From Hanleya hanleyi (taxonomy: Eukaryota; Mollusca; Polyplacophora; Lepidopleurida; Hanleyidae), in assembly GCA_036873755.1 (NCBI GenBank), contig JAVTVY010020608.1:1-64000 (forward strand): a stretch of 64,000 nt of DNA, in the 5' to 3' direction. Both the position numbers and the translations under genes were made by a program. A model generated the notes under the pieces. It saw only the letters and a program-made list of their open reading frames with translations. It did no database searches and had not been told where the DNA came from. This document shows positions 23,235 through 51,544 of this stretch, piece after piece (position 1 is the stretch's first letter; every line of letters starts with the position of its first letter).

Positions 23235-23240
23235 GGGCTC
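23235..23240 (+). repeat. 6-bp target-site duplication, left (GGGCTC)
   Basis: GGGCTC directly precedes the AGTAGTAGTATAAGCG terminus. An identical GGGCTC follows the inverted terminus at 30522-30527. Six-bp duplications are the mark of Polinton-type integrases. Confidence 0.92.
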
Positions 23241-23500
23241 AGTAGTAGTATAAGCGTATTTGACCGCACATTTCACCCGGATGTAATGAAGTCACTGGAG
23301 CGGATTTGAGGCGGAACTTGATCACGTGATCAAGGCATGTACTGACATGTTCTGGATTGCATCAGCATTGGCTGTGTGCCAAGTGTTGACCACTATAATT
23401 CCGGCAACCTTTGACCTTTGTATTCCTCCGCGGTGATGAGGTCATGTCTGGCGGTGATGCGGTCGCCTCCGCGGAAAAAAAGTAGTCCCCAGAGTTCAAA
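23241..23500. repeat. Left unique terminal inverted repeat
   Basis: Matches 30265-30521 in reverse complement with only scattered differences. It includes a TTGATCACGTGATCAA palindrome near 23319-23334 and CTCCGCGGTGATGAGG and GCGGTGATGCGGTC blocks, which recur in the terminus of the larger element at 36737 and 38412. Confidence 0.88.
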
Positions 23501-24150
23501 TACGCTGCATGGTCCGATGGGGTCGAGTGAGGTATCAAAGTGAAGCATTCGTGAAGGGGCATCTGATGGGCTGGGCGCGGGGTTGAAATATCGTCATCTT
23601 GCACATGCGCGGTGGACCAAGGGTATGGAAATAGACGTTTTGGGGTCTAGGGGAGCCACTAATGGTCCAATTGGGTCATATGAGGTATCCATGTGAAGCA
23701 TTCGTAAAGGGGCATCTGATGGGCTGGATGCGGGGTTGAAATATCGGCATTCTGCGCATGCGCGGTGGACCAAGGGTATGGAAATAGACGTTTTCGGGTC
23801 TTTGTCACCAGTCTGGGCATGCGCAGACAGGGAATTGTGGGAAAAGGGTATGAAAATAGACGTTTTGGGATCTAGGAGAGCCCCTAATGGGCCGACGGAG
23901 TCGTATGGGGTATCAATGTGAAGCACACATCAGGGGGCATCTGACTGGCCTTGTGGCTCGGGCGTTGGCACCAGTCTGCGCATGCGCAGACAGGGAATTG
24001 TGGGAAGATGGTATGGAAATAGACGTTTTGGGATCTGGGTGGGCCCCTAATGGGTCGATGGAGTTGTATGAGGTATCAATGTGAAGCACACATGAGGGGG
24101 GCACCGGCCTGGACTAGTGTCTCGGCCGTTGTCACCAGTCTGCGCATACG
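23501..24150 (-). repeat. Left ~155-bp tandem array with NRF1-like sites
   Basis: About four units, each with a TGCGCATGCGCA-like palindrome, GGGAATTGTGGGA, ATAGACGTTTTGGG, GATCTAGG-GAGCCCCTAATGG and GAGGTATCAATGTGAAGC. The same unit builds the ends of the larger element at 36.8-39.9 kb and 50.3-51.5 kb. Confidence 0.88.
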
Positions 24151-24164
24151 CAAACAGGGAATTG

Positions 24165-24320
24165 TGAGCAACGCCCGCCAACGCCAAGCTCAACGCTTCA
24201 ACGCCCTGGTGAATTAGCCCAAAAGCTCTGATTTTTCTAGACATTAATTCATTGGAAATGCAGTGACGCCCGTCAACGTCCGCCTTAACGCCCTAGCATA
24301 ACGCCTTGACGTCATGATAT
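24165..24320. repeat. GCGTT/AACGC motif array, outer left
   Basis: AACGCC, CAACGC, TAACGC or their near variants occur at ~9-12 bp spacing (ACGCCCGCCAACGCCAAGC, TCAACGCTTCAACGCCC, and CGCCTTAACGCCC). The mirror copy is at 29305-29455. The ~10-bp phasing resembles protein-binding iterons. Confidence 0.65.
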
Positions 24321-24413
24321 AGACAGATGAGAGAAGAACAACAACAACAAGGATGAGAGAACAACAACAACAACAACAAGTTTTTTTCATATAGTTTATT
24401 TTCCCCTCCATCA

Positions 24414-24452
24414 TAACATACCCACGCTGGGGGAGCCGCGTTGGGTATGTTT
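24414..24452 (-). terminator. Conserved 3' hairpin with GGCTCCCCCA loop, left arm
   Basis: Reading the minus strand, AACATACCCAACGC and GCGTGGGTATGTT form a ~13-bp stem around a GGCTCCCCCA loop, ~160 bp beyond the zinc-finger gene stop. AATAAA lies downstream on the same strand. A related hairpin with the same loop follows the ATPase gene of the larger element at 44860, so it is probably a 3'-end or packaging signal. Confidence 0.6.
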
Positions 24453-24608
24453 ACAATTCAAGAATACTCTTGTCCAATCAGAGACCGCCATTTGGTCCTG
24501 CCATATTCGTTCTTGCCCGTTAAGTGTATTCTCGGCTGCACTTGTCCAATCAGAAGCCGTCCTTAAAAAAGCCCCATCTTCGGCTCTGTTTGCTCTCAGC
24601 CGTTTGTT

Positions 24609-25181
24609 CTAATCGTCGTCGGTCAGGCCTGGATATTCGTCGAGCAGCATGTCGTGAAACAGTTGTTTGCGCATTCTAATCGCATTTACCAGGGCCTCGG
24701 TGGGTGGTAAACCCATATCCTCTTCCAAGTGACGATTGGTCTTCATGATGGACCTGTGCGTGGGGTCGCCTTTCATTTCAAGCGGTAGTAAGGTATACTG
24801 TTCATAGATCGCCATGGCTGTTTTCCTGATGCGGGGCCGCATTTCGGTGTACGCCTGTTGTAAGTTATCCTGTTCCGCGTCCTCGATCGCTTCAGCGTGA
24901 ATATTGATAGCTGCTGTCACAATACGATCCCAGAAGGTAGGTTCTGCCTCACTTTCCTGGAATGTAGGCTGACTATCTGAGGTCAAGCTCTCCATATCAC
25001 TAGATAGACTGTCAGCAATCTTGGATTCAGTATCAGTCGATACACTCTCATCGATCTCTGTATCAGCATCCGATTCAACGGAATCCTCGGCGTCTTCAAT
25101 CCCATGTATATTTTTCTGGTGTCGCATCATATCGTAATGTCTGGTGAACGTGCCTTCACACTCGGAACAAGTATAAGCCAT
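24609..25181 (-). CDS. C2H2 zinc-finger protein with acidic linker and helical domain (left arm)
   Basis: 190 aa starting at MAYTCSEC, the first Met after the long divergent upstream frame. One C2H2 finger (Cys4 and Cys7, then two His separated by four residues) is followed by an acidic Ser/Thr-rich linker (many D, E, S, T; ~residues 30-75) and a helical C-terminal domain. That domain contains DPTHRSIMKT and AIRMRKQLFHDML, which align with DPVHMEIEKT and AIAQKQHLFERII in the C-terminus of the neighbouring ATPase protein, so the two genes look like relatives or share a module. Probably a DNA-binding protein; function unknown. The right-arm twin is at 28438-29010. Confidence 0.75.
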   Translation of the reverse strand: MAYTCSECEGTFTRHYDMMRHQKNIHGIEDAEDSVESDADTEIDESVSTDTESKIADSLSSDMESLTSDSQPTFQESEAEPTFWDRIVTAAINIHAEAIEDAEQDNLQQAYTEMRPRIRKTAMAIYEQYTLLPLEMKGDPTHRSIMKTNRHLEEDMGLPPTEALVNAIRMRKQLFHDMLLDEYPGLTDDD

Positions 25182-25234
25182 GTTGACGGTTGAACGTCGA
25201 CTGTGCGTGTTTTGGGAATACACTCGCTTTCATA

Positions 25235-25345
25235 GAGAGTAACACCCGCCAACGCCCACTGTTACGCCTTAACGCCCAATATGTACGCCTTGACGCTCGT
25301 CTCAACGCTTTAACACACTTTCTTAACGCTTTAACGTCGTTTAAT
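25235..25345. repeat. GCGTT/AACGC motif array, inner left
   Basis: AACACCCGCCAACGCCC, TTACGCCTTAACGCCC, TCAACGCTTTAAC and TTAACGCTTTAACGTCG follow each other in the ~110 bp between the zinc-finger gene start and the ATPase gene end. Mirror copy at 28265-28385. It overlaps the 3' end of the ATPase frame at 25331. Confidence 0.65.
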
Positions 25346-26567
25346 GATGCGTTCAAACAAATGCTGCTTTTGTGCTATTGCTCTGACATACGCCGCTTTC
25401 CAGTTCATGCCCCAGGTTTTCAACATCGACGCTGTTTTTTCGATTTCCATATGGACTGGGTCCTTGTCCAACAATTTCATATGGGTCACGAGGTCGACAT
25501 ACTGCTGACGTAAAGCCCGTCGTAGTCTGGGTGCCAAGCTGTTATGGGCTAAAATTGCGGCTTCTTTTTTCGAATATCCTTTGTGCTGAAACTTGTTTTC
25601 TGTGGCCCTCAACGTCTCGCCCATCTCGGCGTTCATACTTTCTTTGAACAAATCCTTCCATAGCCTCGAGTTCACATTATGTTCATTCCCTTGTACGGGT
25701 ACGGGTTGGGCCTTCACGGTTGGGTGATATTCCGGGACTGATGGTATGAAGCGGACCCGCTGTATGGGGGTGGGTTGCTGCTGCTTCTGCTCTGCCAGGA
25801 GTGGACTCGGCGGATGGTGGAGGGGTATATGACGTTGCGGTGATTCCTCGCCGGGTAACAGGTGGGTCGTCAGCCGACGATCTTCGGGGGTATGGGCTTT
25901 TAAATCTACGAACAGGTAGCCGTACGGACGACTTGTCGCCCCTTGAAACGCCTGCATGAAATGGTCGATGTTCTGAGGATAAATTCGACTACCAAACACG
26001 GATTTGTGCTCTGTCAATGGGATTGGAGAACAACACAAAGTATTGGCAGTTCAAGGCAATATCTCTGGACGCCTTTCCTTGAGGAAAGAGATTCTGGGTC
26101 AAATAGATGACGGACAGATTCCGATGATGGGATCCTTTAGTAAACAAGTCGGAGACGTGTGAATTGTCCTTGGCCGCACTCATCAGATCATCTAGCACTA
26201 CCACGTTGGTCTGCTCGGGTTCAAAGTAATACGGTTCGTTTATGTCGTGGGGAATCTCTGGGACGAAGCTCACATTCTGTAACCTTGTAGTTTCGTAGGC
26301 GGGCTGCCATTGGCTATTACACCAAACAACACGTGTCGGAGCTGGGGTTGCCACACCTCCCTCTAAGAACTTCATCACCCAGGACGTCTTTCCACATGCC
26401 GTAGGGCCGCTCACCGTCATCGTATAGGGATGGTATACTGCTCCTGTTGGACCTATAGCGTGACTCGGCTGTGTCTCTTGGTTGTGTTTGCGTTGAATGT
26501 GCCTGAGCATACTATCGCGAGGAGAGAAGGTTCTCTGACAGAAAGTACACGTAGACGACATGTTCAT
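25331..26567 (-). pseudogene. Zinc finger-A32 ATPase, left arm, broken by a 2-bp deletion
   Basis: The ATG at 26567-26565 opens a protein with one C2H2 finger (CTFCQRTFS...H-x4-H), Walker A GPTACGKT, Walker B VVVLDD and IYLTQN, the layout of A32/FtsK-like genome-packaging ATPases of Polintons and related dsDNA viruses. Near 25998-26003 the left arm has GTGTTT where the right arm has GTGTGTTT, a 2-bp loss that shifts the frame and ends the first part. The second part (from about 26013 down to 25331) keeps GYLFVDLKAHTPEDR, a Pro/Gln-rich linker, and the helical C-terminal domain that the right arm has lost. Confidence 0.85.
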
Positions 26568-26569
26568 CA

Positions 26570-27195
26570 GTCGACCAATACATATGGACTGATGATGGAC
26601 ACATGTTCATTCCTATATTTACAGACTCTACCACCACCACATACACCACCACCAACTCCACCAACACCACCGCCACACACCACCAACACCACCACCAACG
26701 CCACCAACGCCACCACCAACACCACCAACGCCACCAACGCCATCAACCCCCGGTGGTGGTGGTAGCCCCCGTGTGGCAGAGCTCTTGGGTCGGAGCTCTT
26801 GGAGCGCGTGCGCGTGTACCTGTGCTGCACCCTGTACCCTATAGCCCGTGGGGAATAGGGTACACCAGGGTGTGGGTGCAGCACAGGTACACGCGCATGC
26901 CTGCGATGACGTCATTTCCGAGCTCTGAGCTCCGCAAGCTTTGAGCTCCGAGAGCTCCAATCCAAGAGCTCTGCCACACGGGGGCTACCACCACCACCGG
27001 GGGTTGACGGCGTTGGTGGCCTTGGTGGTGGCGTTGGTGGTGGCGTTGGTGGCGTTGGTGGTGGTGGCGTTGGTGGTAGTGTTGGTGGTGTGTGGCGGTG
27101 GTGTTGGTGGAGTTGGTGGTGGTGTGTGTGGTGGTGGTAGAGTCTAAATATAGGAATGAACATGTGTCCATCATCAGTCCATATGTATTGGTCGA
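26570..27195. repeat. Palindrome centre: (ACC)n/(GGT)n tracts and inner hairpin
   Basis: CCACCA-type runs at 26628-26762 mirror GGTGGT-type runs at 26986-27140. Between them are AGAGCTCTTGG/CCAAGAGCTCT blocks and an inner inverted repeat (GCGCGTGTACCTGTGCTGCA pairing with its complement near 26877-26897) around GGGTACA. This explains the low-complexity ORFs on both strands, none of which I call. A TCTAAATATAGG sequence near 27143 could serve as a TATA box for the right-arm gene. Confidence 0.85.
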
Positions 27196-27198
27196 CTG

Positions 27199-28266
27199 AT
27201 GAACATGTCGTGTACGTGTACGTTCTGTCAGAGAACCTTCTCTCGTCGCGATAGTATGCTCAGGCACATTCAACGCAAACACAACCAAGAGACACAGCCG
27301 AGTCCCGCTATAGGTCCAACAAGAGCAGTATACCATCCCTATACGATGACGATGAGCGGCCGTACGGCATGTGGAAAGACGTCCTGGGTGATGAAGTTCT
27401 TAGAGGGAGGTGTGGCAACCCCAGCTCCGACACGTGTTGTTTGGTGTTATAGCCAATGGCAGCCCGCCTACGAAACTACAAGGTTACAGAATGTGAGCTT
27501 CGTCCCAGGGATTCCCCACGACATAAACGAACCGTATTACTTTGACCCCGAGCAGACCAACGTTGTAGTGCTAGATGATCTGATGAGTGCGGCCAAGGAC
27601 AATTCACACGTCGCCGACTTGTTTACTAAAGGATCCCATCATCGGAATCTGTCCGTCATCTATTTGCCCCAGAATCTCTTTCCTCAAGGGAAGGCGTCCA
27701 GAGATATTGCCTTGAACTTCCAATACTTTGTGTTGTTCTCCAATCCCATTGACAGAGCACAAATTCGTGTGTTTGGTAGTCGAAATTATCCTCAGAACAT
27801 CGACCATTTCATGCAGGCGTTTCAAGGGGCGACAAGTCGTCCGTACGGCTACCTGTTCGTAGATTTAAAAGCCCATACCCCCGAAGATCGTCGGCTGACG
27901 ACCCACCTGTTACCCGGCGAGGAATCACCGCAACGTCATATACCCCAACACCATCCGCAGAGTCCACTCCTGGCAGAGCAGCAGCAGCAACCCACCCCCA
28001 TACAGCGGGTCCGCTTCATACCATCAGTCCCGGAATATCACCCAACCGTGAAGGCCCAACCCGTACCCGTACAAGGGAATGAACATAATGTGAACTCGAG
28101 GCTATGGAAGGATTTGTTCAAAGAAAGCATGGACGCCGAGATGGGCGAGACGTTGAGGGCCACAGAAAACAAGTTTCAGCACAAAGGGTATTCGAAAAAA
28201 GAAGCCGCAATTTTAGCAATTTTTGGCGTATGTCAGAGCAATAGCACAAAAGCAGCATTTGTTTGA
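27199..28266 (+). CDS. Zinc finger-A32 packaging ATPase fusion (right arm, C-terminus lost)
   Basis: 355 aa. One C2H2 finger (Cys7, Cys10, His23, His28) is followed by an ATPase domain with Walker A GRTACGKT (54-61), Walker B VVVLDD (122-127) and an LFTKGSHHRNLSVIYLPQN region (~141-159) that matches the ATPase of the larger element. Family knowledge: such ATPases pump viral DNA into capsids. Then follow GYLFVDLKAHTPEDR, a Gln/Pro-rich linker and the start of a helical domain. After AAILA (~28217) the sequence jumps over about 180 bp present in the left arm, so the C-terminal module is deleted and the end is out of frame. A zinc finger fused to the packaging motor suggests sequence-specific DNA choice (inference). 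Confidence 0.85.
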   Translation: MNMSCTCTFCQRTFSRRDSMLRHIQRKHNQETQPSPAIGPTRAVYHPYTMTMSGRTACGKTSWVMKFLEGGVATPAPTRVVWCYSQWQPAYETTRLQNVSFVPGIPHDINEPYYFDPEQTNVVVLDDLMSAAKDNSHVADLFTKGSHHRNLSVIYLPQNLFPQGKASRDIALNFQYFVLFSNPIDRAQIRVFGSRNYPQNIDHFMQAFQGATSRPYGYLFVDLKAHTPEDRRLTTHLLPGEESPQRHIPQHHPQSPLLAEQQQQPTPIQRVRFIPSVPEYHPTVKAQPVPVQGNEHNVNSRLWKDLFKESMDAEMGETLRATENKFQHKGYSKKEAAILAIFGVCQSNSTKAAFV

Positions 28267-28385
28267 ACGCATCATTAAACGACGTTAAAGCGTTAAGAAA
28301 GTGTGTTAAAGCGTTGAGACGAGCGTCAAGGTGTACATATTGGGCGTTAAGGCGTAACAGTGGGCGTTGGCGGGTGTTACTGTCT
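28265..28385. repeat. GCGTT motif array, inner right
   Basis: GACGTTAAAGCGTTAAG, GTGTTAAAGCGTTGAG, GAGCGTC, GGGCGTTAAGGCGTAAC and GGGCGTTGGCGGGTGTT are spaced by roughly one helical turn. Mirror of 25235-25345, upstream of the right-arm zinc-finger gene, where it could act as operator or origin iterons. Confidence 0.65.
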
Positions 28386-28437
28386 ATGAAAGCGAGTGTA
28401 TTCCCAAAACACGCACAGTCGACGTTCAACCGTCAAC

Positions 28438-29010
28438 ATGGCTTATACTTGTTCCGAGTGTGAACGGACGTTCACCAGACATTACGATATGATGCGACAC
28501 CAGAAAAATATACATGGGATTGAAGACGCCGAGGATTCCGTTGAATCGGATGCTGATACAGAGATCGATGAGAGTGTATCGACTGATACCGAATCCAAGA
28601 TTGCTGACAGTCTATCTACTGATATGGAGAGCTTGACCTCAGCTAGTCAGCCTACATCCCAGGAAAGTGAGGTAGAACCTACCTTCTGGGATCGTATTGT
28701 GACAGCAGCTATCAATACTCACGCTGAAGCGATCGAGGACGCGGAACAGGATAACTTACAACAGGCGTACACCGAAATGCGGCCCCGCATCAGGAAAACA
28801 GCCATGGCGATCTATGAACAGTATACCTTACTACCGCTTGAAACGAAAGGCGACCCCACGCACAGGTCCATCATGAAGACCAAGCGTCACTTGGAAGAGG
28901 ATATGGGTTTACCACCCACCGAGGCCCTGGAAAATGCGATTAGAATGCGCAAACAACTGTTTCACGACATGCTGCCCGACGAATATCCAGGCCTGACCGA
29001 CGACGATTAG
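28438..29010 (+). CDS. C2H2 zinc-finger protein with acidic linker and helical domain (right arm)
   Basis: 190 aa, the twin of 24609-25181, with a handful of substitutions (for example ECERTF for ECEGTF). Same layout: N-terminal C2H2 finger, acidic Ser/Thr linker, helical module with DPTHRSIMKT. The open frame extends upstream to 28396, but MAYTC is preferred because the finger starts right after it. Preserved reading frames in both arms, despite damage to the ATPase genes, suggest either recent origin or continued selection. Confidence 0.75.
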   Translation: MAYTCSECERTFTRHYDMMRHQKNIHGIEDAEDSVESDADTEIDESVSTDTESKIADSLSTDMESLTSASQPTSQESEVEPTFWDRIVTAAINTHAEAIEDAEQDNLQQAYTEMRPRIRKTAMAIYEQYTLLPLETKGDPTHRSIMKTKRHLEEDMGLPPTEALENAIRMRKQLFHDMLPDEYPGLTDDD

Positions 29011-29166
29011 AACAAACGGCTGAGAGCGAACAGAGCCGAAGATGGGGCTTTTTTAAGGACGGCTTCTGATTGGACAAGTGCAGCCGAGAATACACTTAAC
29101 GGGCAAGAACGAATATGGCAGGACCAAATGGCGGTCTCTGATTGGACAAGAGTATTTTTGAATTGT

Positions 29167-29207
29167 AAACATACCCAACGCGGCTCCCCCAGCGTGGGTA
29201 TGTTATG
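29167..29207 (+). terminator. Conserved 3' hairpin with GGCTCCCCCA loop, right arm
   Basis: AACATACCCAACGC - GGCTCCCCCA - GCGTGGGTATGTT, followed by GGAAAATAAAC (AATAAA near 29218). Mirror of the left-arm hairpin and related to the hairpin after the ATPase gene at 44860. Confidence 0.6.
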
Positions 29208-29304
29208 ATGGAAGGGAAAATAAACTATATAAAAAAAACTTGTTGTTGTTGTTGTTGTTCTCTCATCCTTGTTGTTGTTGTTCTTCTCTCATCTGTCTAT
29301 ATCA

Positions 29305-29455
29305 TGGCGTCAAGGCGTTATGCTAGGGCGTTAAGGCGGACGTTGACGGGCGTCACTGCATTTCCCATGAATTAGTGTCTAGAAAAATCAGAGCTTTTGG
29401 GCTAATTCACCAGGGCGTTGAAGCGTTGAGCTTGGCGTTGGCGGGCGTTGCTCAC
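29305..29455. repeat. GCGTT motif array, outer right
   Basis: GGCGTCAAGGCGTTATG, GGGCGTTAAGGCGGACGTTG, GGGCGTTGAAGCGTTGAG and TTGGCGTTGGCGGGCGTTG. Mirror copy of 24165-24320. Confidence 0.65.
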
Positions 29456-30264
29456 AATTCCCTGTTTGCGTATGCGCAGACTGGTGAAAACGGCCGAGAC
29501 ACTGGTCCAGGCGGGTGCCCCCACATGTGTGCTTCACATTGATACCTCATACAACTCCATCGACCCATTACCCCTAATGGGTCGATGGAGTTGTATGAGG
29601 TATCACCCAGATCCCAAAACGTCTATTTCCAAAACGTCTATAACCACGCAGACTGGTGCCAACGCCCGAGCCACTAGTTCAGTCAGATGCCCCCTCATGT
29701 GTGCTTCACATGGATACCCCATACGACTCCATCGGCCCATTAGGGGCTCTCCTAGATCCCAAAACGTCTATTTTCATACCCTTTTCCTACAATTCCCTGT
29801 CTGCGCATGCGCAGGCTGGTGACAACGGCCGAGACACTAGTCCAGACGGATGCCCCCTCATGTGTGCTTCACATTGATACCTCATACGACTCCATCGGCC
29901 CATTAGGGGCTCTCCTAGATCCCAAAACGTCTATTTGCATACCCATTTCCTACAATTCCCTGTCTGCGCATGCGCAGACTGGTGACAACGGCCGAGACAC
30001 TAGTCCAGACGGATGCCCCCTCATGTGTGCTTCACATTGATACCTCATACGACTCCATCGGCTCAGTAGGGGCTCCCCTAGATCCCAAAACGTCTATTTT
30101 CATACTCTTGGTCTACTGCGCATGCGCAAAATGACGTCAGTTCCACGTGTCACCCACCCCGTCGGATGCGCCTTCACGAATGCTTCACATGGATTCCTCA
30201 TACGACTCCATCGGCCCATTAGGGGCTCTCCTAGATCCCATGATCCCTAGACCATGCAGCGTAT
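29456..30264 (+). repeat. Right ~155-bp tandem array with NRF1-like sites
   Basis: About five units in the opposite orientation to 23501-24150, each with CTGCGCATGCGCAGACTGGT-like cores. Near 29565-29605 a small inverted duplication of the GGGTCGATGGAGTTGTAT block breaks the register. Frames that run through several units only reflect the repeat period. Confidence 0.88.
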
Positions 30265-30521
30265 TTGAATTCTGGGGACTTTTTTCTCCGCGGAGGCGAC
30301 CGCATCACCGCCAGACATGACCTCATCACCGCGGAGGAATACAAAGGTCAAAGGTTGCCGGAACTATAGTGGTCAACACTTGGCACACAGCCAATGCTGA
30401 TGCAATCCAGAACATGTCAGTACATGCCTTGATCACGTGATCAAGTTCCGCCTCAAATCCGCCCCAGTGACGTCATTACATCCGGGTGAAATGTGCGGTC
30501 AAATACGCTTATACTACTACT
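30265..30521. repeat. Right unique terminal inverted repeat
   Basis: Reverse complement of 23241-23500, ending ATACTACTACT at 30521, with TTGATCACGTGATCAA at about 30429-30444. Confidence 0.88.
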
Positions 30522-30527
30522 GGGCTC
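30522..30527 (+). repeat. 6-bp target-site duplication, right (GGGCTC)
   Basis: Identical to 23235-23240; together they fix the exact ends of the palindromic element. Confidence 0.92.
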
Positions 30528-36460: not shown

Positions 36461-36617
36461 TATGACATAGGAATACGAGAGCGAGAGTTTCTCGAAATCT
36501 GCGCGATATGCACGTCCCATTCTTCAGTTTTACCGTACCAGACACAAAATTAATCCGTACATCAAAATATGCAAACGCTGATATTGGGAGAATTGGGACA
36601 AATTTTAACAAAGTAGG

Positions 36618-36672
36618 AGTCCGGTGTTCCTATGTCCTCAATGCTTTTGGAAAACTGGAATACGGGAGCGAT
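36618..36672 (+). repeat. Flank of the large element, copy 1
   Basis: GTCCGGTGTTCCTATGTCC through GGAATACGGGAGCGAT is repeated almost exactly at 38272-38327. It is also the reverse complement of the end of the 60-bp array (36424-36476). It is the sequence just outside the AG-type terminus in both cases. Confidence 0.7.
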
Positions 36673-36676
36673 ATTA

Positions 36677-37270
36677 GTATGTAGCAACCCGATTCGCTCA
36701 ACTTGACCTTTGACCTCAGAAATTTGCAAATCTTCCGCGGTGATGCGGTCTGGTGGTGATGCGGCCGCGGGAGAAAGCTTCCGCGGACAGAAAGTAGTCC
36801 CTAGACTTCAAATACGCTGCATGGTCCGATTGGGTCGAGTGAGGTATCAAAGTGAAGCATTCGTGAATGGGCATCTGATGGGCTGGGTGTGGGGTTGAAA
36901 AATCGGCATTCTGCGCATGCGCGGTGGCCAAAGGGTATGTAAATAGACGTTTTCGAGTTAGGGGAGCCACTAATGGTCCAATGGGGTCATATGAGGTATC
37001 AATGTGAAGCATTCGTGAAGGGGCATCTGATGGGCTAGATGCGGGGTTGAAATATGTCATTCTACGCATGCGCGGTGGACAAAGGGTATGGAAATAGACG
37101 TTTTGGGATCTAGGGGAGCCACTATTGGTCCGATTGAGTCGAGTGAGGTATTATTGTGAAACCTATGTGAGGGGGCATCTGATGGACTGGGTGTGACGTG
37201 GAACTGATGTCGTTCTGCGCATGCGCAGTAGACAAAGGATATCGAAATATACATTTTGGGATCTAGGGGA
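36677..37270 (+). repeat. Left terminal array, short copy (L1)
   Basis: Same terminus sequence as 38328 onwards, then ~3 units of the 155-bp NRF1-site repeat before jumping to the subterminal region at 37286. It lacks the AGATGACCTCGAATTC segment and most units found in L2 (38328-39900). Confidence 0.8.
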
Positions 37271-37319
37271 GCCCCTAATGGGGTCTAGACTTGTCTGTGT
37301 CTGTCATGTACTGGGGTTT

Positions 37320-37555
37320 TTCCCCAACAATGGCGTTCACCTTCGGGTCTTTCCGGTCAACGTATTCGCCATTGTGGGAAAATGGACGATAATGGCGGAT
37401 ACACCGCCATTGTGGGAAAATGGCGGATAGTGGCGGATACGTTGACCGGAAAGACCCGAAGGTGACCGCCATTGTGGGAAAATGGCGGATAATGGCGGAT
37501 ACGTTGACCGGAAAGACCCGAAGGTGACCGCCATTGTGGGGAAAACCCCACAGAC
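37320..37555. repeat. Subterminal hairpin-forming repeats, copy 1
   Basis: CACCTTCGGGTCTTTCCGG, TCAACGTATTCGCCATTG is followed by two inverted units (AATGGCGGATACGTTGACC, GGAAAGACCCGAAGGTGACC), so several alternative ~55-bp stem pairings exist. ATGGCGGATA tracts fill the centre. The second copy is at 39950-40175. Placement between the terminus and first gene makes it a candidate replication origin or promoter element (inference). Confidence 0.75.
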
Positions 37556-37696
37556 AGGTCAGTACATGCATTCCTATGATGTTCACAGGTTACGCCGATT
37601 CACGACGGGCCGTCACAGGGCGTAGTAGAAAAAAGCGCATTTCTAACCTTATTGACCTTATGGCGCAAGCGAGTATAACAAGTGCCACGCACGGTG

Positions 37697-37703
37697 TATA
37701 AAA
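37697..37703 (+). promoter_or_regulatory. TATA box of the first PC4-like gene (duplicate copy)
   Basis: TATAAAA, 68 bp upstream of the ATG at 37765. Matching TATA boxes precede most genes of this element. Confidence 0.6.
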
Positions 37704-37764
37704 CCCTACCCAACAGGTACACTATAAAGCCACCTCTCCAACCGTTCGCTTTTCATTCCCCACC

Positions 37765-38271
37765 ATGGCAGTGAGCGGAACAGAGCTTCCGTTATTCCAA
37801 CTGACGTCCGACGTCTACCTCATCGTCAATGACGATCACCTGGAGCTGGTCCAAGACGCACCGCAGAAGGTGAAGATTCTGTTATCGCTATCAGGCTGGA
37901 CTCTATTGACACGATTGTTACAGGGAAAGGACCGCGAAAGGGATTTCATGCACGTGGGAGTCGGCGTGCACATACGCACTGCTGGAGAGGGTTCCCTTTT
38001 TCCCCGGTTGGAACAGAGTGGAGGTACCTATATCACACTCTGTCCACCCTTATGGATGGCACTGAAAGATGTACTCCCCGAGGTGGATGACTTACTACAC
38101 CCCGAGGTGAAAGAAGGGACTGTGGCTACCCGGAGGCTTACACCTGGCTGCACCCTATTTTTTTATACCCCAAACGAGTGAACCTCATCGATAGCGGACT
38201 TAGGTGTTGGTGTACGCCTGAACCCAAAGCGCACGTCTCTTTGTCACCGGAAGGATGGACAACCTTGAAAC
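37765..38271 (+). pseudogene. PC4-like protein, truncated duplicate (L1 copy)
   Basis: The first 138 codons (to TGA at 38179-38181) match the gene at 40381 with ~95% identity by eye. It has two repeats of the PC4-like pattern: a beta-rich segment ending in a helix such as ILLSLSGWTLL and ITLCPPLWMALKDVLPEVDD. A T-run with one extra base relative to the other copy causes the stop. Homology continues past it but is cut at 38271, where the flank of the element restarts. It is therefore a fragment made by the left-end duplication. Confidence 0.75.
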
Positions 38272-38327
38272 GGGTCCGGTGTTCCTATGTCCTCAATGCT
38301 TTTGGAAAACTGGAATACGGGAGCGAT
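38272..38327 (+). repeat. Flank of the large element, copy 2
   Basis: Second copy of the sequence at 36618-36672, ending GAGCGAT just before AGTAGTAGG. Host-like flank inside the element shows that the duplication unit includes outside DNA, as expected of a tandem duplication or of two haplotypes placed in series by an assembler. Confidence 0.7.
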
Positions 38328-39905
38328 AGTAGTAGGTAGCAACCCGATTCGCTCAACTTGACCTTTGACCTCAGAAATTTGCATATCACGTGAAAGATGA
38401 CCTCGAATTCTTCCGCGGTGATGCGGTCTGGTGGTCATGCGGCCGCGGGAGAAAGCTTCCGCGGACAAAAAGTAGCCCTAGACTTCAAATACGCTGCATG
38501 GTCCGATTGGGTCGAGTGATGTATCAAAGTGAAGCATTCGTGAATGGGCATCTGATGGGCTGGGTTTCGGGTTGATATATCGGCATTCTGCGCATTCGCC
38601 GTGGCCAAAGGTTATGAAAATAGACGTTTTGGAGCTAGGGGAGCCACTAATGGTCCAATGGGGTCATATGAGGTACAAAAGTGAAGCATTCGTGAATGGG
38701 AATCTGATGGGCTGGGTGTGGGGTTGAAATATCGGCATTCTGCGCATGCGCGGTGGCCAAAGGTTATGAAAATAGACGTTTTGGGATCTAGGGGAGCGAC
38801 TATTGGTCCGATTGAGTCGAGTGAGGTATTATTGTGAAACCTATGTGAGGGGGCATCTGATGGACTGGGTGTGACGTGGAACTGACGTCATTCTGCGCCT
38901 GCGCAGTAGACAAAGGGTATCGAAATATACATTTTGGGATCTAGGGGAGCCCCTAATGGGCCGATGGAGTTGTATGAAGTATCCATGTGAAGCCTATGTG
39001 AGGGGGCATCCGACTGCACTAGCGGCTCGGGTGTTGTCACCATTCTGCGCATGCACAGACAGGGAATTGTGGGAAAAGGGTTTGGAAATACACGTTTTGG
39101 CATCTAGGGGAGCCCCTAATGGGCCGATGGAGTCGTATGAGGTATCCATGTGAAGCCTAGGTGAGGGGGCATCTGACTGGACTAGTGGCTCGGCTGTTGT
39201 CACCATTCTACGCAGGCGCAGACAGGGAATTGTGGGAAAAGGGTATGGAAATAGACGTTTTGGGGTCGAGGGGAGCCCCTAATGGGCCGATGGAGTCGTA
39301 TGAGGTATCAATGCGAAACCTAGGTCAAGGGGCATCCGCCTGGACTAGTGTCTCGGCCGTTTCAACATTCTGCGCATGCGCAGGCAGGGAATTGTGGGAA
39401 AAGGGTATGGAAATAGACGTTTTGAAGTCTGGATGGGCCACTAGTGGTCCTATGGAGTCGTATAAGGTATCAATGTGAAGGATACGTGAGGGGGCATCCG
39501 CCTGGACTAGTGTGTCGTTTGTGTTCAACATTCTGCGCATGCGCAGACAGGGAATTGTGGGAAAAATGCATTGGAAGGATCGTTTTGGGGTCTAGGGGAG
39601 TCCCTAGTGGGCCGATTGGATCGAGTGAGGTATCCCTGTGAAGCCTATGTGAGGGTGCATCTGATGGGGCGAGTGCGGGGTTGAAATATCGTCACTCTGC
39701 GCATGCGCAGTGGACAAAGGGGTATGGAAATAGACGTTTTGGGGACTAGGTGGGCCACTAGTGGGTCGCTGGGATCGAGTGAGGTATCCATGTGAAGCCT
39801 AGGTGAGGGGGCTAGACTAGGGTGTCGTTTCCATTCTGCTGCGCAGGTCACGTGGGTTGTGACGTCACTTCCGGTTTGGGTGAATGGGGCGTGACCTTTG
39901 GACAT
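38328..39905 (+). repeat. Left terminal array, long copy (L2)
   Basis: Starts AGTAGTAGGTAGCAACC, runs through TTCCGCGGTGATGCGGTC (shared with the palindromic element's terminus) and then ~8 units of ~155-165 bp, each with TGCGCATGCGCAG, GGGAATTGTGGGAAAAGG, ATAGACGTTTTGGG and GGGCCGATGGAGTCGTATG. GTGACGTCAC lies near 39860. Inverted copy at 50330-51513. Confidence 0.85.
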
Positions 39906-39949
39906 GTCTAGACTTGTCTGTGTCTGTCATGTACTGGGGTTTTTCCCCA

Positions 39950-40175
39950 CAATGGCGTTCACCTTCGGGTCTTTCCGGTCAACGTATTCGCCATTGTGGG
40001 GAAATGGCGGATAATGGCGGATACACCGCCATTGTGGGAAAATGGCGGATAATGGCGGATACGTTGACCGGAAAGACCCGAAGGTGACCGCCATTGTGGG
40101 AAAATGGCGGATAATGGCGGATACGTTGACCGGAAAGACCCGAAGGTGACCGCCATTGTGGGAAAACCCCACAGA
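39950..40175. repeat. Subterminal hairpin-forming repeats, copy 2
   Basis: Near-identical to 37320-37555 (TTCACCTTCGGGTCTTTCC with two inverted partners). The right side of the element has only a diverged single copy (50225-50280), so this structure is polar. Confidence 0.75.
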
Positions 40176-40312
40176 CCCTACATGCATTCCTATGATGTTC
40201 ACAGGTTACGCCCATTCACGAAGGGCCGTCACAGGGCGTAGTAGAAAAAAGCGCATTTCTAACCTTATTGACCTTATGGCGCAAGCGAGTATAACAAGTG
40301 CCACGCACGGTG

Positions 40313-40319
40313 TATAAAA
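40313..40319 (+). promoter_or_regulatory. TATA box of the PC4-like gene
   Basis: TATAAAA, 68 bp upstream of the ATG at 40381, same distance as in the duplicate copy. Confidence 0.6.
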
Positions 40320-40380
40320 CCCTACCCAACAGGTACACTATAAAGCCACCTCTCTAACCGTTCGCTTTTCATTCCCCACC

Positions 40381-41062
40381 ATGGCAGCGAGCGGAACAGA
40401 GCTTCCGTTATTCCAACTGACGCCCGAAGTCTACCTCATCGTCAATGACGATCACCTGGAGCTGGCCCAAGACGCACTGCAGAAGGTGAAGATTCTGTTA
40501 TCGCTATCAGGCTGGACTCTATTGTCACGATTGTTACAGGAAAAAGACCGCGAAAGGGATTTCATGCACGTGGAAGTCGGCGTGCACATACGCACCGCTG
40601 GAGAGGGTTCCCTTTTTCCCCGGTTGGAACAGAGTGGAGGTACCTATATCACACTCTGTCCATCCTTATGGATGGCACTGAAAGATGTACTCCCCGAGGT
40701 GGATGACTTACTACACCCTGAAAGAAGGGACTGTGGCTACCCGGAGGCTTACTCCTGGCTGCACCCTATTGTTGTACCCCAAACGAGTGGACCTCATCGA
40801 TAGCGGACTTAGGTGTTGGTGTACGCCTGAACCCAAAGCGCACGTCTCTTTGTCACCGGAAGGATGGACTACCTTGAAACGGGTGTTGTTTGGTGACCGG
40901 CACGGTGATAGCATTCACCTGTGTGACGACGTCTACATTTTCTGCGGTCCCTTTTTCGCTCGACTCCTCTGTCTGAACGACGGTGGTTTTACCCTGGACC
41001 CCGATCTATGGACGGCTTTGGAACAAGTAGTCCCCATTGTCGATAAGGCACTATCTCTATAG
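40381..41062 (+). pseudogene. PC4-like tandem-domain protein, frameshifted
   Basis: Two overlapping frames (40381-40803 and up to 41062) together contain four PC4-like modules: each has a short beta-rich stretch and a helix with the pattern S/T-L-x-P-x-x-W-x-x-L/F-x-x-V, the last ending VVPIVDKAL, which resembles the C-terminal helix of the ssDNA-binding transcription cofactor PC4. Relative to the duplicate at 37765, five bases are missing near 40720, which breaks the frame; the duplicate has a different break. So the ancestor was probably one ~225-codon gene. Likely role: ssDNA or promoter binding in replication or transcription. The PC4 assignment is by pattern only. Confidence 0.6.
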
Positions 41063-41137
41063 GAGCCACATAACCAATCAGAATAGTACGTATCACGGAC
41101 TACACCCGACGTCTAAGCGCGCATGTGTGACCTGGTC

Positions 41138-41144
41138 TATAAAA
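41138..41144 (+). promoter_or_regulatory. TATA box of a 59-aa gene
   Basis: TATAAAA in GGTCTATAAAACACG, 53 bp before the ATG at 41191. Confidence 0.5.
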
Positions 41145-41190
41145 CACGTTTCTCTGGATCCTACACCTTCATTTCTACGGTTGCAGAGCC

Positions 41191-41370
41191 ATGACGGAGA
41201 TCCAGCCCTATGCGACTCGCATTTTACAGTATGCCACCGTGGTTAATTCACTCACGGGTTACCGAGCAGTGGTCCGGTCTATGTTTGCAGATGGCGACGA
41301 CAACGAGGGGCGACGCCAGATCCTGAACGAGTTCACAGAAGCGGTCCTCGACAGAGTGCACTCGATGTAG
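41191..41370 (+). CDS. Small 59-aa protein of unknown function
   Basis: ATG at 41191 opens MTEIQPYATRILQYATVVNS and ends RVHSM before TAG at 41368-41370. It is mostly helical by composition, with an acidic loop (DGDDNEGRR). Support comes from its own TATA box at the usual distance and from fitting tightly between neighbouring genes. No family recognised. Confidence 0.45.
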   Translation: MTEIQPYATRILQYATVVNSLTGYRAVVRSMFADGDDNEGRRQILNEFTEAVLDRVHSM

Positions 41371-41400
41371 AGGTGTGCCATCACTCACCACTACTGGACT

Positions 41401-41517
41401 ATGACAGCCATCTTTGATGCTCGGGCTATGGACCACGAGCGCTCACGCCGGAACCAGCGACGGCTGGTTGGCCTAGTCATGGTCTGTGCCCTATTGACCC
41501 TGGCGCTGTGGCATTGA
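41401..41517 (+). CDS. Small 38-aa single-pass membrane protein
   Basis: ATG at 41401, stop TGA at 41515-41517. A charged N-terminal half (HERSRRNQRR) is followed by a hydrophobic segment (LVGLVMVCALLTLALW) that should span a membrane, with positive residues just before it. It is packed 30 bp after the previous ORF. Tiny membrane proteins occur in adenovirus-like genomes, but I recognise no homologue. Confidence 0.4.
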   Translation: MTAIFDARAMDHERSRRNQRRLVGLVMVCALLTLALWH

Positions 41518-41531
41518 CAGTGGGACCTGAC

Positions 41532-41539
41532 TATAAATA
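41532..41539 (+). promoter_or_regulatory. TATA box (TATAAATA)
   Basis: GACTATAAATACAAGGGTCA, 58 bp before the preferred ATG at 41590. The same CTATAAATAC-AG string precedes the next gene at 42103. Confidence 0.65.
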
Positions 41540-41589
41540 CAAGGGTCAGACAGAGTGTGTGTCATTCAACGATCGTCATTGGATCAAGC

Positions 41590-42069
41590 ATGTCACCAGT
41601 CCTACGAGCCATCCTTCCCCTTACACCCCGGGTGGGGTTACACGTCTATGATGATAAAGTCACCCTCGTGGAAGACCGTGGAGATGTTTGCTGGTCGCCC
41701 GCTGAGACCGTATCGAATACGGTTATGCTACACCGTGACGGCTGGACCAAATTTAAACGGGTGTTGAGCGGCGAGCTCGACGGACACCTCATCCACATAG
41801 ACAATGCCATCTACGTACACCGTGGACCCTTCTTCCCACGCCTGGGCCGCTACCAGGACCTTACGCGAGGCTTCACCCTAGACCCCGATCTGTGGACAGC
41901 CTTCGAGAAAGTGGTGCCTATCGTGGACCAGCTGTTTACACCGGACGAGCAGTCATCAGACGAGTTGGAGTGGGCTCGTGCCCTGAGAGAAGCGGCGGCA
42001 GAACCCAATGAACAAATGTCTAGCCATGAACCAGACGACGATGCCATTGATTACCCGGCTAGACATTGA
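41590..42069 (+). CDS. PC4-like protein, paralogue 2
   Basis: I prefer the ATG at 41590 (MSPVLRAIL) because it starts at the same place as the paralogues relative to the domain and lies a normal distance from the TATA box; an ATG at 41557 is also in frame. About 159 aa. Module 1 has LHVYDDKVTLVED and VMLHRDGWTKFKRVLSG; module 2 has IYVHRGPFFPRLG and FTLDPDLWTAFEKVVPIVDQ. An acidic, disordered tail follows (EQSSDELEW onward), as in some ssDNA-binding proteins. No break seen. Confidence 0.65.
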   Translation: MSPVLRAILPLTPRVGLHVYDDKVTLVEDRGDVCWSPAETVSNTVMLHRDGWTKFKRVLSGELDGHLIHIDNAIYVHRGPFFPRLGRYQDLTRGFTLDPDLWTAFEKVVPIVDQLFTPDEQSSDELEWARALREAAAEPNEQMSSHEPDDDAIDYPARH

Positions 42070-42102
42070 CCACCCGATCCTTTGATCTCACGAGGTTCTC
42101 CC

Positions 42103-42110
42103 TATAAATA
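42103..42110 (+). promoter_or_regulatory. TATA box (TATAAATA)
   Basis: CCTATAAATACGAGAGACAG, 47 bp before the ATG at 42150. Confidence 0.65.
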
Positions 42111-42149
42111 CGAGAGACAGTCAAATCTTGTACCACTCACGTACTGACC

Positions 42150-42617
42150 ATGACGGAGGCAGTACGGGCGTATCTCAGCTTGACCCCCGAGGTCTTCCTG
42201 CACGTGTATGCGGATACGGTCGATATCATGGAGGAGGTGGGAGACATCTGTGATGCGGACCCTACACAACCGTGCCCGGCTCACATTCGTCTCTCCCGGG
42301 AGAACTGGACCAAATTCAAACGCGTGTTGTCTGGTGAACTGGACGGCGACCTCATCCACTTGTGTCACGATGTGTACATCCGACGCGGCCCTTTCTTTGC
42401 TCAATTGGCTCGGCTAGATGGAGGTACAGTGCATTTTATCCTTCACCCTGATCTATGGTCTGCATTGGAAGATGCCGTGGTAGATGTGGATCAAGTGCTT
42501 GTCAAGCGGTCATCAGACGAGTTGGACTGGTCATTTACCGTGGACACTGTGGAAGCCAACGAAGAAAATCAGAAAGAAACTCCGGCCCAAGATATAACCG
42601 TTATAAATAAACGATAG
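42150..42617 (+). CDS. PC4-like protein, paralogue 3
   Basis: 155 aa. Module 1: FLHVYADTVDIMEEVGDI and IRLSRENWTKFKRVLSG; module 2: DVYIRRGPFFAQLARL and FILHPDLWSALEDAVVDVDQ. The order beta-segment, helix, beta-segment, helix matches two PC4-like half domains. An acidic tail contains SSDELDW, the same motif as in paralogue 2, so these arose by tandem duplication. Overlaps the TATA box of the integrase gene at its 3' end. Confidence 0.65.
   Translation: MTEAVRAYLSLTPEVFLHVYADTVDIMEEVGDICDADPTQPCPAHIRLSRENWTKFKRVLSGELDGDLIHLCHDVYIRRGPFFAQLARLDGGTVHFILHPDLWSALEDAVVDVDQVLVKRSSDELDWSFTVDTVEANEENQKETPAQDITVINKR
42602..42609 (+). promoter_or_regulatory. TATA box of the integrase gene
   Basis: TATAAATA inside the last codons of the preceding gene, 43 bp before the ATG at 42645. 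Confidence 0.6.
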
Positions 42618-42644
42618 AGCCAGGGTCCGTCATCATTTGTCACC

Positions 42645-43718
42645 ATGAAGCGCTGGGAAAAGGTGTTGGATAACTTATACTACAGTCCCGACAGTCCGGC
42701 GGCCTATAGTGCATTGTCGGCTCTCTATCGAGCGGCCAAACCCCAGGGGATACAACGTGCCCAAGTCCGAGATTGGTTAAGAAAACAAGACACCTCTACC
42801 TTACATCGATCTGTCCGTCGCCATTTTCTACGGAACCGGTTCATCGTGGGAGGAATAGATGCCCAGTGGCAAGCGGATTTGGTCGATATGAGCGCCTTTG
42901 CCAAACACAACGATGGGAATCGGTATATCTTGACGTGCATCGATATCCTATCGAAGTATGCGTGGGTGGTACCCATTCGGACGAAAACGGGGGCGAATCT
43001 CATAGCGGCGTTCAAAGACATCTTCAAGACCGGGCGCAAACCTTTGTATTTGCAAACCGACGAAGGCACGGAATTCCTCAACAGACCGTTCCAACAGTTT
43101 CTGAAAGCCCAGAAGTTGTTTTTCTTCCATACGTACAACGAAACCAAGGCTTCCGTGGTGGAAATGTTCAACAGGACATTCAAAGCCCGCATGTATAAAT
43201 ATTTCACCTATAAGAATACAAGGCGGTACATCGATGTTCTCCCGAAACTTGTGAGTGGTTACAATCGAGCCTATCGCCGGAGTATAGAGAGAGCCCCCAT
43301 TACCGTGACCCAACGCAATGAAGCCCAAGTCCGGCGTGTCTTGTACCCCAGGCCATCGCAACGAACGACGAAGGCGGTGTTCAAGGTCGGGGACCCTGTA
43401 CGGATTAGTAAAGTCAAAGGTCGATTTGAGAAAAGTTACTTGCCCAACTGGAGCGATGAGCACTTCCTGATTAAACGGCGCCTACCCCGACAGCAGCGAA
43501 TCTATGAACTGGAAGATCTCCAAGGGGAACCGTTGCGAGGGACATTTTACGAGACGGAATTAAAGCCTGTCGTAAAAACACAGCAAGACTACTACACGGT
43601 GGAGCAGATTTTGAAAACGGAACGTCGACGTGGCAAACTGTTTCACTTCGTCAAATGGCAAGGCTGGCCCAGTTCCTTCAATTCCTGTGTCGCTGCCAAC
43701 CAGGTGAAACGACTATAA
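42645..43718 (+). CDS. Polinton-type integrase with C-terminal chromodomain
   Basis: 357 aa. The catalytic core shows the DDE triad: Asp78 in WQADLVDM, Asp139 in LQTDEGTEF and Glu173 in VVEMFNR. An N-terminal helical region (1-70) with RDWLRKQ precedes it. A C-terminal chromodomain (~315-355) has YTVEQILKTE and FHFVKWQGWP; a Cys stands in FNSCV where related proteins usually have Trp. Family knowledge: these retroviral-type integrases insert Polintons with 6-bp duplications, as seen for the palindromic element at 23241-30521. The ORF is intact, so it could have been active recently. Confidence 0.92.
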   Translation: MKRWEKVLDNLYYSPDSPAAYSALSALYRAAKPQGIQRAQVRDWLRKQDTSTLHRSVRRHFLRNRFIVGGIDAQWQADLVDMSAFAKHNDGNRYILTCIDILSKYAWVVPIRTKTGANLIAAFKDIFKTGRKPLYLQTDEGTEFLNRPFQQFLKAQKLFFFHTYNETKASVVEMFNRTFKARMYKYFTYKNTRRYIDVLPKLVSGYNRAYRRSIERAPITVTQRNEAQVRRVLYPRPSQRTTKAVFKVGDPVRISKVKGRFEKSYLPNWSDEHFLIKRRLPRQQRIYELEDLQGEPLRGTFYETELKPVVKTQQDYYTVEQILKTERRRGKLFHFVKWQGWPSSFNSCVAANQVKRL

Positions 43719-43720
43719 AG
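43714..43720 (+). promoter_or_regulatory. TATA-like box (TATAAAG)
   Basis: Overlaps the integrase stop codon region, 55 bp before the ATG at 43769. Confidence 0.5.
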
Positions 43721-43768
43721 CCAGACACCACTACCGTCATCGTTCATTCCAAGTCCGACCACAGTGCT

Positions 43769-44353
43769 ATGGACAAACAGCATCTGCCTCTGAACACAGC
43801 GTCTCCCAAAACGCGCAAAGCGCAAGTGGGCTTTGGGGTGATAGTGCTAACCCTGCTGAGTGTGTTGTACGGAGGTGTGTTTTACGACGTAGCCTATGTC
43901 AGCACGTTACTTAACCAACTGAGAACACCAGCCACCAGTGAAACCGGTCTACAGATAGCACCAGTCAACCCCGTATCGAGCCCAGTCACCACCACACCCC
44001 GTGTACAAGTAACGTCGAGCTCCACACCAAGCTCCACATCTACACCAAGTACACCCCCTACGTCTGAAGACCCAGCGGATTTCATCCCTCAGAGTAAACA
44101 GACAACGACGACCGACGTTTTACCCACCACCATCATCACTCGCAGTGAACAGACAACGACGACCGACGTTGTACCCACCACCACTCCATTTCACTCGTAC
44201 GAAATTTACAAGAGCGGGTTACCGCGACAACGGATACACCTCGAACCATGGACCCTCGCATGCAGCATCCCTTCACTTGCGTCATCGCAGGACCGACGGG
44301 TTCCGGCAAAACGCACTTCGTCCGGAAGCTCCTTCAACACGCCGACAGCATGA
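43769..44353 (+). CDS. Type II membrane protein with Thr/Pro-rich stalk
   Basis: I start at 43769 (MDKQHLPLNT); the frame is open further upstream but that part overlaps the integrase. About 194 aa: a short cytosolic-like N-terminus with KTRKAQ, one hydrophobic segment (VGFGVIVLTLLSVLYGGVF, ~20-40), then a long Ser/Thr/Pro-rich region with a repeated EQTTTTDV/KQTTTTDV motif, expected to be O-glycosylated. The last ~35 codons overlap the ATPase gene in another frame, and may or may not be used. It could be a surface or attachment protein (inference). Confidence 0.55.
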   Translation: MDKQHLPLNTASPKTRKAQVGFGVIVLTLLSVLYGGVFYDVAYVSTLLNQLRTPATSETGLQIAPVNPVSSPVTTTPRVQVTSSSTPSSTSTPSTPPTSEDPADFIPQSKQTTTTDVLPTTIITRSEQTTTTDVVPTTTPFHSYEIYKSGLPRQRIHLEPWTLACSIPSLASSQDRRVPAKRTSSGSSFNTPTA

Positions 44354-44856: not shown

Positions 44857-44859
44857 TGT

Positions 44860-44902
44860 AAACACACCCACAGTGGCTCCCCCAGCTGGGGTCTGTGTGT
44901 TT
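44860..44902 (+). terminator. Conserved 3' hairpin with GGCTCCCCCA loop
   Basis: AAACACACCCACAGT - GGCTCCCCCA - GCTGGGGTCTGTGTGTTT pairs with one bulge, and CCCCAGCTGGGG inside is itself palindromic. It immediately follows the ATPase stop. The same loop occurs in the hairpins of the palindromic element (24414 and 29167), despite different stems, which argues for a conserved RNA or DNA signal. Confidence 0.65.
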
Positions 44903-44970
44903 GATGATGGGGATAATGAAAAGAATGAATACCACAGCATGGTTGACTTTGTCTCTGTTCTCTGAGGTGG

Positions 44971-44977
44971 ATAAAAA
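44971..44977 (+). promoter_or_regulatory. TATA-like box before the structural gene block
   Basis: GGATAAAAAGGG, 40 bp before the ATG at 45011. It is the last TATA-like box before a run of six tightly packed structural genes. Confidence 0.5.
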
Positions 44978-45010
44978 GGGCAGAGTTGTGGGTTCTGGCA
45001 TTAGTTGTAC

Positions 45011-46197: not shown

Positions 46198-46230
46198 AAC
46201 CAACAGCAGCAGCAGGACAGCTCAGTCGCC

Positions 46231-47402: not shown

Positions 47403-47405
47403 AAC

Positions 47406-48701: not shown

Positions 48702-48702
48702 C

Positions 48703-49165: not shown

Positions 49166-49199
49166 TTTCACGTGGTTGTTCTCACGTTGTTGTTGTTAC

Positions 49200-51513: not shown

Positions 51514-51544
51514 TCAATTTTGCAAGGCTTCGTGTCTACATAGT

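What the first reader, a model, noticed from the sequence alone, without database searches (positions are those of the whole stretch)
23235..30527. A complete palindromic Polinton-family element carrying only zinc fingers and packaging ATPases
Exact 6-bp GGGCTC duplications and AG-starting inverted termini define a 7,281-bp insertion made by a Polinton-type integrase, yet it encodes no integrase, polymerase or capsid. Both arms carry a C2H2 finger fused to an A32 packaging ATPase plus a second zinc-finger protein. This is what a satellite would carry if it steered a helper virus's packaging machinery to its own DNA, comparable in logic to phage satellites. The structure is seen; the satellite role is inference.
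Basis: partly seen in the sequence, partly recalled or inferred. Interest (0 to 1): 0.92.

Follow-up and report, generated by a model that had tools for sequence, protein, structure and literature searches.

The report
Polinton satellite carrying zinc-finger packaging motors
A short mobile DNA element in a large, probably animal, genome carries only two zinc-finger genes, one fused to a virus-type DNA-packaging motor, and belongs to a family that shares its ends with virus-like elements, so it may travel by borrowing their integrase and virus shells; the borrowing itself is not yet shown.

Summary
In detail: 23241-30521 is a 7,281-bp near-palindrome (arms 95.5% identical) with exact AGTAGTAGT termini and GGGCTC target duplications. 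Each arm encodes a C2H2 finger-ATPase-helical protein and a second finger protein with a related C-terminus. Both ATPase copies here are damaged; both second genes are open.

It belongs to a family. Of 26 other distinct insertions with its terminal repeat, 8 carry the same gene pair, 4 another zinc-finger gene (one also an integrase), 14 none. Ten insertions, this one included, show different perfect 6-bp duplications (two less secure). Full-length open ATPase frames occur elsewhere, and between-element dN/dS in the deepest comparisons is about 0.3, against about 1 between this copy's arms. No ZF-ATPase element examined had an integrase, capsid-candidate or polymerase hit. A non-palindromic two-gene element exists, so the palindrome is probably derived.

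A Polinton-like element 6 kb away, with integrase, bare ATPase and probable capsid genes but no polymerase found, shares the 163-bp end arrays; so does one capsid-type element elsewhere.

Best reading: a helper-dependent Polinton satellite whose ZF-ATPase steers packaging to shared end arrays. Ends, family, gene content and selection are shown; helper dependence and packaging are inferred.

The parts
23235..23240 (.). left target-site duplication GGGCTC
30522..30527 (.). right target-site duplication GGGCTC
23241..23481 (+). left terminal inverted repeat, starts AGTAGTAGT
   Evidence: inner part (positions 80-241) matches at 91-99% in the other listed copies
30281..30521 (-). right terminal inverted repeat
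23509..24166 (+). left subterminal array of 153/163-bp repeats, also found at the ends of the neighbouring Polinton-like element
29453..30240 (-). right subterminal array
24609..25223 (-). left ZF204: one C2H2 finger plus C-terminal domain, frame open
28396..29010 (+). right ZF204, frame open
25331..26567 (-). left ZF-ATPase gene, split by a frameshift into frames 25989-26567 and 25331-26038
27199..28266 (+). right ZF-ATPase gene, 355 aa, C-terminus lost where about 146 bp are missing
26620..27147 (.). centre of the palindrome, CCA/TGG-rich; inferred shared 5' control region of the diverging genes
   Evidence: promoter role inferred
36612..51519 (+). neighbouring Polinton-like element (candidate helper class), right end truncated, left end rearranged; start AGTAGGAG at 36612 chosen by inspection
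42645..43718 (+). rve integrase with C-terminal chromodomain
   Evidence: rve 1.3e-10; Chromo 2.7e-4, under Pfam's cut-off
44248..44856 (+). bare A32/FtsK-type packaging ATPase, no zinc finger
45005..48701 (+). probable virion genes, including candidate major capsid protein 47446-48701 (two frames)
   Evidence: for frames; capsid label recalled from likeness and gene order: no Pfam or PDB hit, single-sequence model unusable

Best explanation
A helper-dependent Polinton/Maverick satellite. SHOWN: a family of about 2.5-11.5 kb elements with common (AGT)n termini, 6-bp target duplications and 153/163-bp subterminal arrays; one class encodes only a C2H2-ATPase-CTD fusion and a ZF-CTD protein, both with signs of purifying selection between elements. 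SHOWN: the integrase/ATPase/probable-capsid element next door, and one capsid-type locus elsewhere, have the same kind of arrays, and the latter the same (AGT)3 terminus. INFERRED: the helper's integrase inserts the satellite, and a PolB encoded elsewhere in the genome copies it. The ZF-ATPase binds the end arrays through its finger and either replaces or docks onto the helper's bare ATPase, so that satellite DNA is taken into helper capsids; the ATPase-less ZF-CTD protein helps recognise the arrays. This is the logic of adenovirus IVa2 with its partner on the A-repeats. Palindromes like this one form by inverted duplication during linear replication, which puts array and packaging site at both ends, and decay after insertion.
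Against: No expression, particle or DNA-binding data. ZF-ATPases form a wide family (934 hits) whose context elsewhere could not be seen; some relatives could sit in full Polintons. The bare and ZF ATPases are only 43% identical, so fit with helper capsids is unproven. L043, another capsid-type locus, has an AGTAGTAT terminus but no array hit. The window copy's outermost 79 bp differ from those of the other copies seen. Close pairs of copies give noisy pN/pS, 0.13-1.30, and the window's ATPase arms give 0.62 there. Co-location counts have low power (full report).
Confidence: 0.5

Rival explanations
1. Deletion (defective-interfering-like) derivative of a still unseen autonomous Polinton that carries a ZF-ATPase near one end; the genes are leftovers and only the ends matter for spread.
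For: 14 of 26 other distinct insertions have no cargo gene, L017, L034 and L037 only a short ZFp325 remnant hit; the eight empty interiors tested match non-coding parts of gene-bearing elements. Palindromes of one end are what defective replication of a linear genome would give.
Against: Purifying selection between elements; the same two genes in a non-palindromic complete element with TSD (L011); 0 of 9 ZF-ATPase elements with integrase, PolB or capsid-candidate hits and no M-started ORF above 408 aa in the fetched loci.
Confidence: 0.2
2. One segment of a distributed (multipartite) element: integrase+ATPase+capsid, PolB, and ZF-ATPase modules sit on separate DNAs with common ends and complement each other.
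For: The neighbour has no ORF above 357 aa and no hit to L001 PolB. PolB copies with open frames of 1,345 aa and more lie on other contigs, none within 12 kb of a listed integrase, bare ATPase or capsid-candidate copy. L025 has integrase without ATPase or capsid hits.
Against: Zero overlap has little power, because only top-scoring copies are listed. The neighbour is truncated and rearranged; L025 is rearranged with no matching TSD.
Confidence: 0.17
3. The ZF proteins are regulators (of helper genes or of replication), not packaging factors; the ATPase is a DNA translocase in replication or partition.
For: An N-terminal C2H2 finger is equally consistent with transcriptional control; the arrays carry the palindrome TGCGCATGCGCA (0 in 41.8 kb of window outside the two elements, 4 and 9 inside).
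Against: The ATPase fold is nearest to virion packaging motors; a shared fold does not prove the function.
Confidence: 0.1

Closest known systems
Polinton/Maverick elements and adintoviruses
   Same: (AGT)n termini, inverted repeats, 6-bp TSD; rve-chromodomain integrase and A32-type ATPase in the sibling element
   Different: No PolB, integrase or capsid-candidate gene here; the ATPase is fused to a finger and a helical domain and is 43% identical to the sibling's
Adenovirus IVa2/L4-22K packaging system
   Same: Packaging-type ATPase plus a second protein, and repeated sites next to the genome end (PMC5033970 passages)
   Different: C2H2 finger instead of IVa2's DNA-binding helices; binding not tested here
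Phage satellites (PICI, P4-like) and virophages/transpovirons
   Same: Small integrated element with a few genes and a related larger element in the same host
   Different: Polinton ends; brings its own ATPase rather than capsid-size or terminase redirectors; helper use not shown (comparison from general knowledge)
Non-autonomous Polintons and foldback elements
   Same: Shared ends, palindromic structure, many gene-free copies
   Different: Keeps two genes with signs of purifying selection (existence of non-autonomous Polintons in Repbase is recalled, not from a call)

Membership tests
Polinton/Maverick | AG/AGT-starting inverted termini with 6-bp target duplication | tested here: met
   ten perfect TSDs (two less secure); motif per PMC8097293 passages
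Polinton/Maverick | rve-type integrase in the element | tested here: not met
   none in 23241-30521; present in neighbour and L025
Polinton/Maverick | protein-primed PolB | tested here: not met
   longest M-started frame in the element 355 aa, no hit to L001 PolB; PolB exists elsewhere in the genome
Polinton/Maverick | A32/FtsK-type packaging ATPase | tested here: met
   both copies here damaged
Polinton/Maverick | capsid proteins | tested here: not met
   (no hit to the neighbour's capsid candidates, whose label is recalled)
Viral satellite | lacks genes for independent spread but carries selected genes of its own | tested here: met
Viral satellite | packaged or mobilised by a helper | not testable with these tools
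   needs particles or a transposition assay; only shared ends seen
Multipartite element | essential modules on separate DNAs with common ends | tested here: inconclusive
   low power, PolB ends not seen

The most novel reading that the evidence does not exclude
A dsDNA virus/transposon with a distributed genome: capsid+integrase, polymerase, and zinc-finger packaging modules amplified as separate linear elements with common ends, with zinc-finger ATPases as segment-specific packaging selectors.
Probability: 0.15. Interest if true: 0.93.

Novelty: new variant of a known kind. Interest (0 to 1): 0.78.

Why it matters
If true, animal genomes host a class of Polinton satellites with their own packaging-specificity motor, a counterpart of phage satellites and virophages. 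It would explain why zinc-finger A32-type ATPases are so frequent (934 database hits; the few named ones listed come from corals, sea anemones and one bacterial MAG label). It would also make an open question testable, whether Polintons still form particles: satellite DNA inside capsids would be direct proof. No description of such elements appeared in the searches (listings read; PMC11071296, PMC6431247 and PMC8097293 searched by passage).

Tried and rejected
IMG/VR scans with the ZF-ATPase, bare ATPase and capsid candidate confirmed no relative; since even the bare ATPase gave none, this says nothing about context. The one GTDB hit, L001, is an adintovirus-like contig in a bacterial MAG with PolB and a bare ATPase. 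ZF204 found no homologue in the protein database. ZFp325 against L001 PolB: no meaningful match, so my hunch that its C-terminal domain is a PolB N-terminus is not supported. A single-sequence model of the capsid candidate was unusable and the PDB sequence search found nothing; the capsid label is recalled. A 49-row ATPase tree puts 13 rows (9 with a finger, 4 unclassed) on one side and 36 on the other (support only 92/50), but two finger fusions (P0150, P0220) lie among the bare ones and the sample is the top 120 of two searches, so a single origin of the fusion is not claimed. Adenovirus symmetric recombinants were recalled as an analogue; the listing showed none.

Full report
Observation. 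The element spans 23241-30521 (7,281 bp) between exact GGGCTC copies; the 16-base terminus is exact at both ends. Arms align over 3,411 ungapped columns at 95.5%, lower in the arrays. GC is 0.48-0.53 in the 1-kb windows over it, against 0.36-0.45 nearby outside the second element. The genes run from the centre towards the ends.

State of this copy. The left ATPase frame is broken near 26.0 kb and the right one loses its C-terminus where about 146 bp are missing. Between arms, pN/pS by gene part is 1.32, 1.10 and 0.67 (sums 25.5 nonsynonymous changes over 1,192 sites, 6.5 synonymous over 326), close to neutral. In another alignment the ATPase arms give 0.62 on few changes.

Family. In the window's own assembly (2.48 Gb, 52,793 contigs) the TIR search scored 40 of 2,633 first-look candidates, on 31 contigs. 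Besides the window's own two ends these make 30 loci; I examined 29 (C47844 not fetched; several are cut by contig ends or by the fetched stretch). Flank comparison shows that three of the 29 are second copies of the same insertion (L028 of L013, L036 of L015, L029 of L021), probably allelic contigs, so there are 26 distinct insertions. With ZF-ATPase: L011, L014, L018, L032, L035, L038, L040, L041 (8 loci, 8 insertions). With ZFp325/ZF175, a class with several fingers: L012/13, L015/16, L023, L025, L028, L036 (6 loci, 4 insertions), of which L025 also has an integrase 83% like the neighbour's and PC4-like frames. No cargo gene: 15 loci, 14 insertions, three with a short ZFp325 remnant hit. 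At E 1e-3 none of the loci except L025 hit the neighbour's integrase, virion or PC4-like frames or L001 PolB, and no fetched locus L010-L041 has an M-started ORF above 408 aa. The capsid probes are candidates and L001 PolB is a distant probe. The list is biased to TIRs like the window's.

Mobility. Perfect 6-bp TSDs, all different: window GGGCTC, C11952 CACGAC, C36683 ATCGTG, C20649 ATCATG, C48524 GTGGGT (one extra AGT on the left), C327 AACGTC, C43315 GACGGA, C5109 GCTGAC, C48441 ATCGAC, C37467 TACCCA (read by eye from printed ends). At C43315 and C48524 the two flanks resemble each other (96% and 86%), so those two are less secure. C11997 matches in 5 of 6; C17599, C1186 and L025 (C23919) have degenerate ends or no match. 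Vertebrate Mavericks are reported with (AG)3 or (AGT)2 end motifs and 6-bp TSDs (PMC8097293, passages).

Form. L011 holds one ZF-ATPase and one ZF204 in a non-palindromic 6.5-kb element; L014 and L035 hold one ATPase and two inverted ZF204 genes (one partial or broken); the window, L018, L041 and, with an insertion, L032 hold two inverted pairs. In the genome list 12 of 102 contigs have two ZF-ATPase copies 1.5-1.9 kb apart, in opposite orientation. The palindrome therefore looks derived and recurrent.

Selection. One search used 11 ZF-ATPase and 14 ZF204 copies from 8 loci (L041 and the second L038 ATPase copy were not in it). L038 is the most diverged ATPase copy: pN/pS with the ten others is 0.29-0.34 in nine and 0.55 in one (partial copy, L040); its thirteen ZF204 comparisons run 0.23-0.35. 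These share one branch. Close pairs are noisier, 0.13 to 1.3 over all comparisons of more than 6 codons. Genome list: 114 scored of 40,436 first-look candidates, 88 without a stop inside the match by my count; allelic contigs may be counted twice in this and the next lists.

Candidate helper. The element at about 36.6-51.5 kb has an rve-chromodomain integrase, a bare ATPase and further frames; no ORF exceeds 357 aa, and L001 PolB gives no hit in it. Its arrays match those of the palindrome (best 87% over 388 columns; other stretches about 68-86%). Both arrays repeat TGCGCATGCGCA: 4 exact copies in the palindrome, 9 in the neighbour, 0 in the other 41.8 kb; it resembles an NRF-1 site by recall. 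L042, beside another capsid-type copy, has an (AGT)3 terminus, TIR likeness 84% over about 57 bases and arrays up to 88%; L043 has AGTAGTAT but no array hit. Scored copies without a stop: integrase 111 of 114, bare ATPase 148 of 150. Capsid candidate: 143 scored. PolB: 84 of 1,723 candidates scored, on 79 contigs among the rows listed.

Co-location. Outside the window contig, within 12 kb: bare ATPase-integrase 4 pairs, bare ATPase-capsid candidate 4, integrase-capsid candidate 2; ZF-ATPase with integrase, capsid candidate, bare ATPase or PolB 0; PolB with any 0. ZFp325 shares two contigs with integrase (C38054, C16222, starts about 3-4 kb apart) and none with ZF-ATPase. Genes that do share elements gave only 4 pairs from 114 and 150 rows, because the lists hold only the best-scoring copies. 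The zeros are therefore weak evidence; the element contents above carry the argument.

Mechanism. Shown: common ends and arrays, the two-gene class, signs of selection, packaging-type fold. Inferred: helper integration and copying, finger recognition of arrays, loading into helper capsids. The nearest precedent is adenovirus IVa2 and L4-22K on A-repeats beside the genome end (PMC5033970, passages).

Literature. Six searches listed no description of a zinc-finger ATPase satellite of Polintons; the library lacks most subscription papers. PMC11071296 (passages) mentions zinc-finger 'Ziftr' genes in some adintoviruses and a clam adomavirus, a possible link not tested. PMC6431247 (passages) gave general background only.

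Noticed in passing
window 37765-42617: The neighbouring element has several related 125-170 aa frames that look like PC4-type ssDNA-binding domains (label by eye; no Pfam hit for the two tested); homologues flank the integrase in L025.
   Followed up: partly
window 36619-40884: The left end of the neighbouring element is a partial head-to-tail duplication of its terminal region (36619-38275 and 38274-40884).
   Followed up: no
L013:1441-2415, L016:238-762: A second satellite class carries multi-finger proteins (ZFp325, ZF175); ZFp325 relatives also lie 3-4 kb from integrase on C38054 and C16222, and many listed copies have exactly two in-frame TGA codons, reason unknown.
   Followed up: partly
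window 51623-52703 and 58140-59225: Inverted 97% copies of a reverse-transcriptase-like repeat, one starting about 100 bases beyond the truncated right end of the neighbouring element (RT label by eye).
   Followed up: no
L001: A 7-kb contig in a bacterial MAG is an adintovirus-like sequence with PolB and bare ATPase, a likely contaminant.
   Followed up: partly
window 993-3403: Large tandem array with a period of about 165 bp; no match to the element arrays was listed.
   Followed up: no
L021 (C43315): The two flanks of this empty element are 96% alike over 166 bases, as if it sat in a tandem repeat.
   Followed up: no
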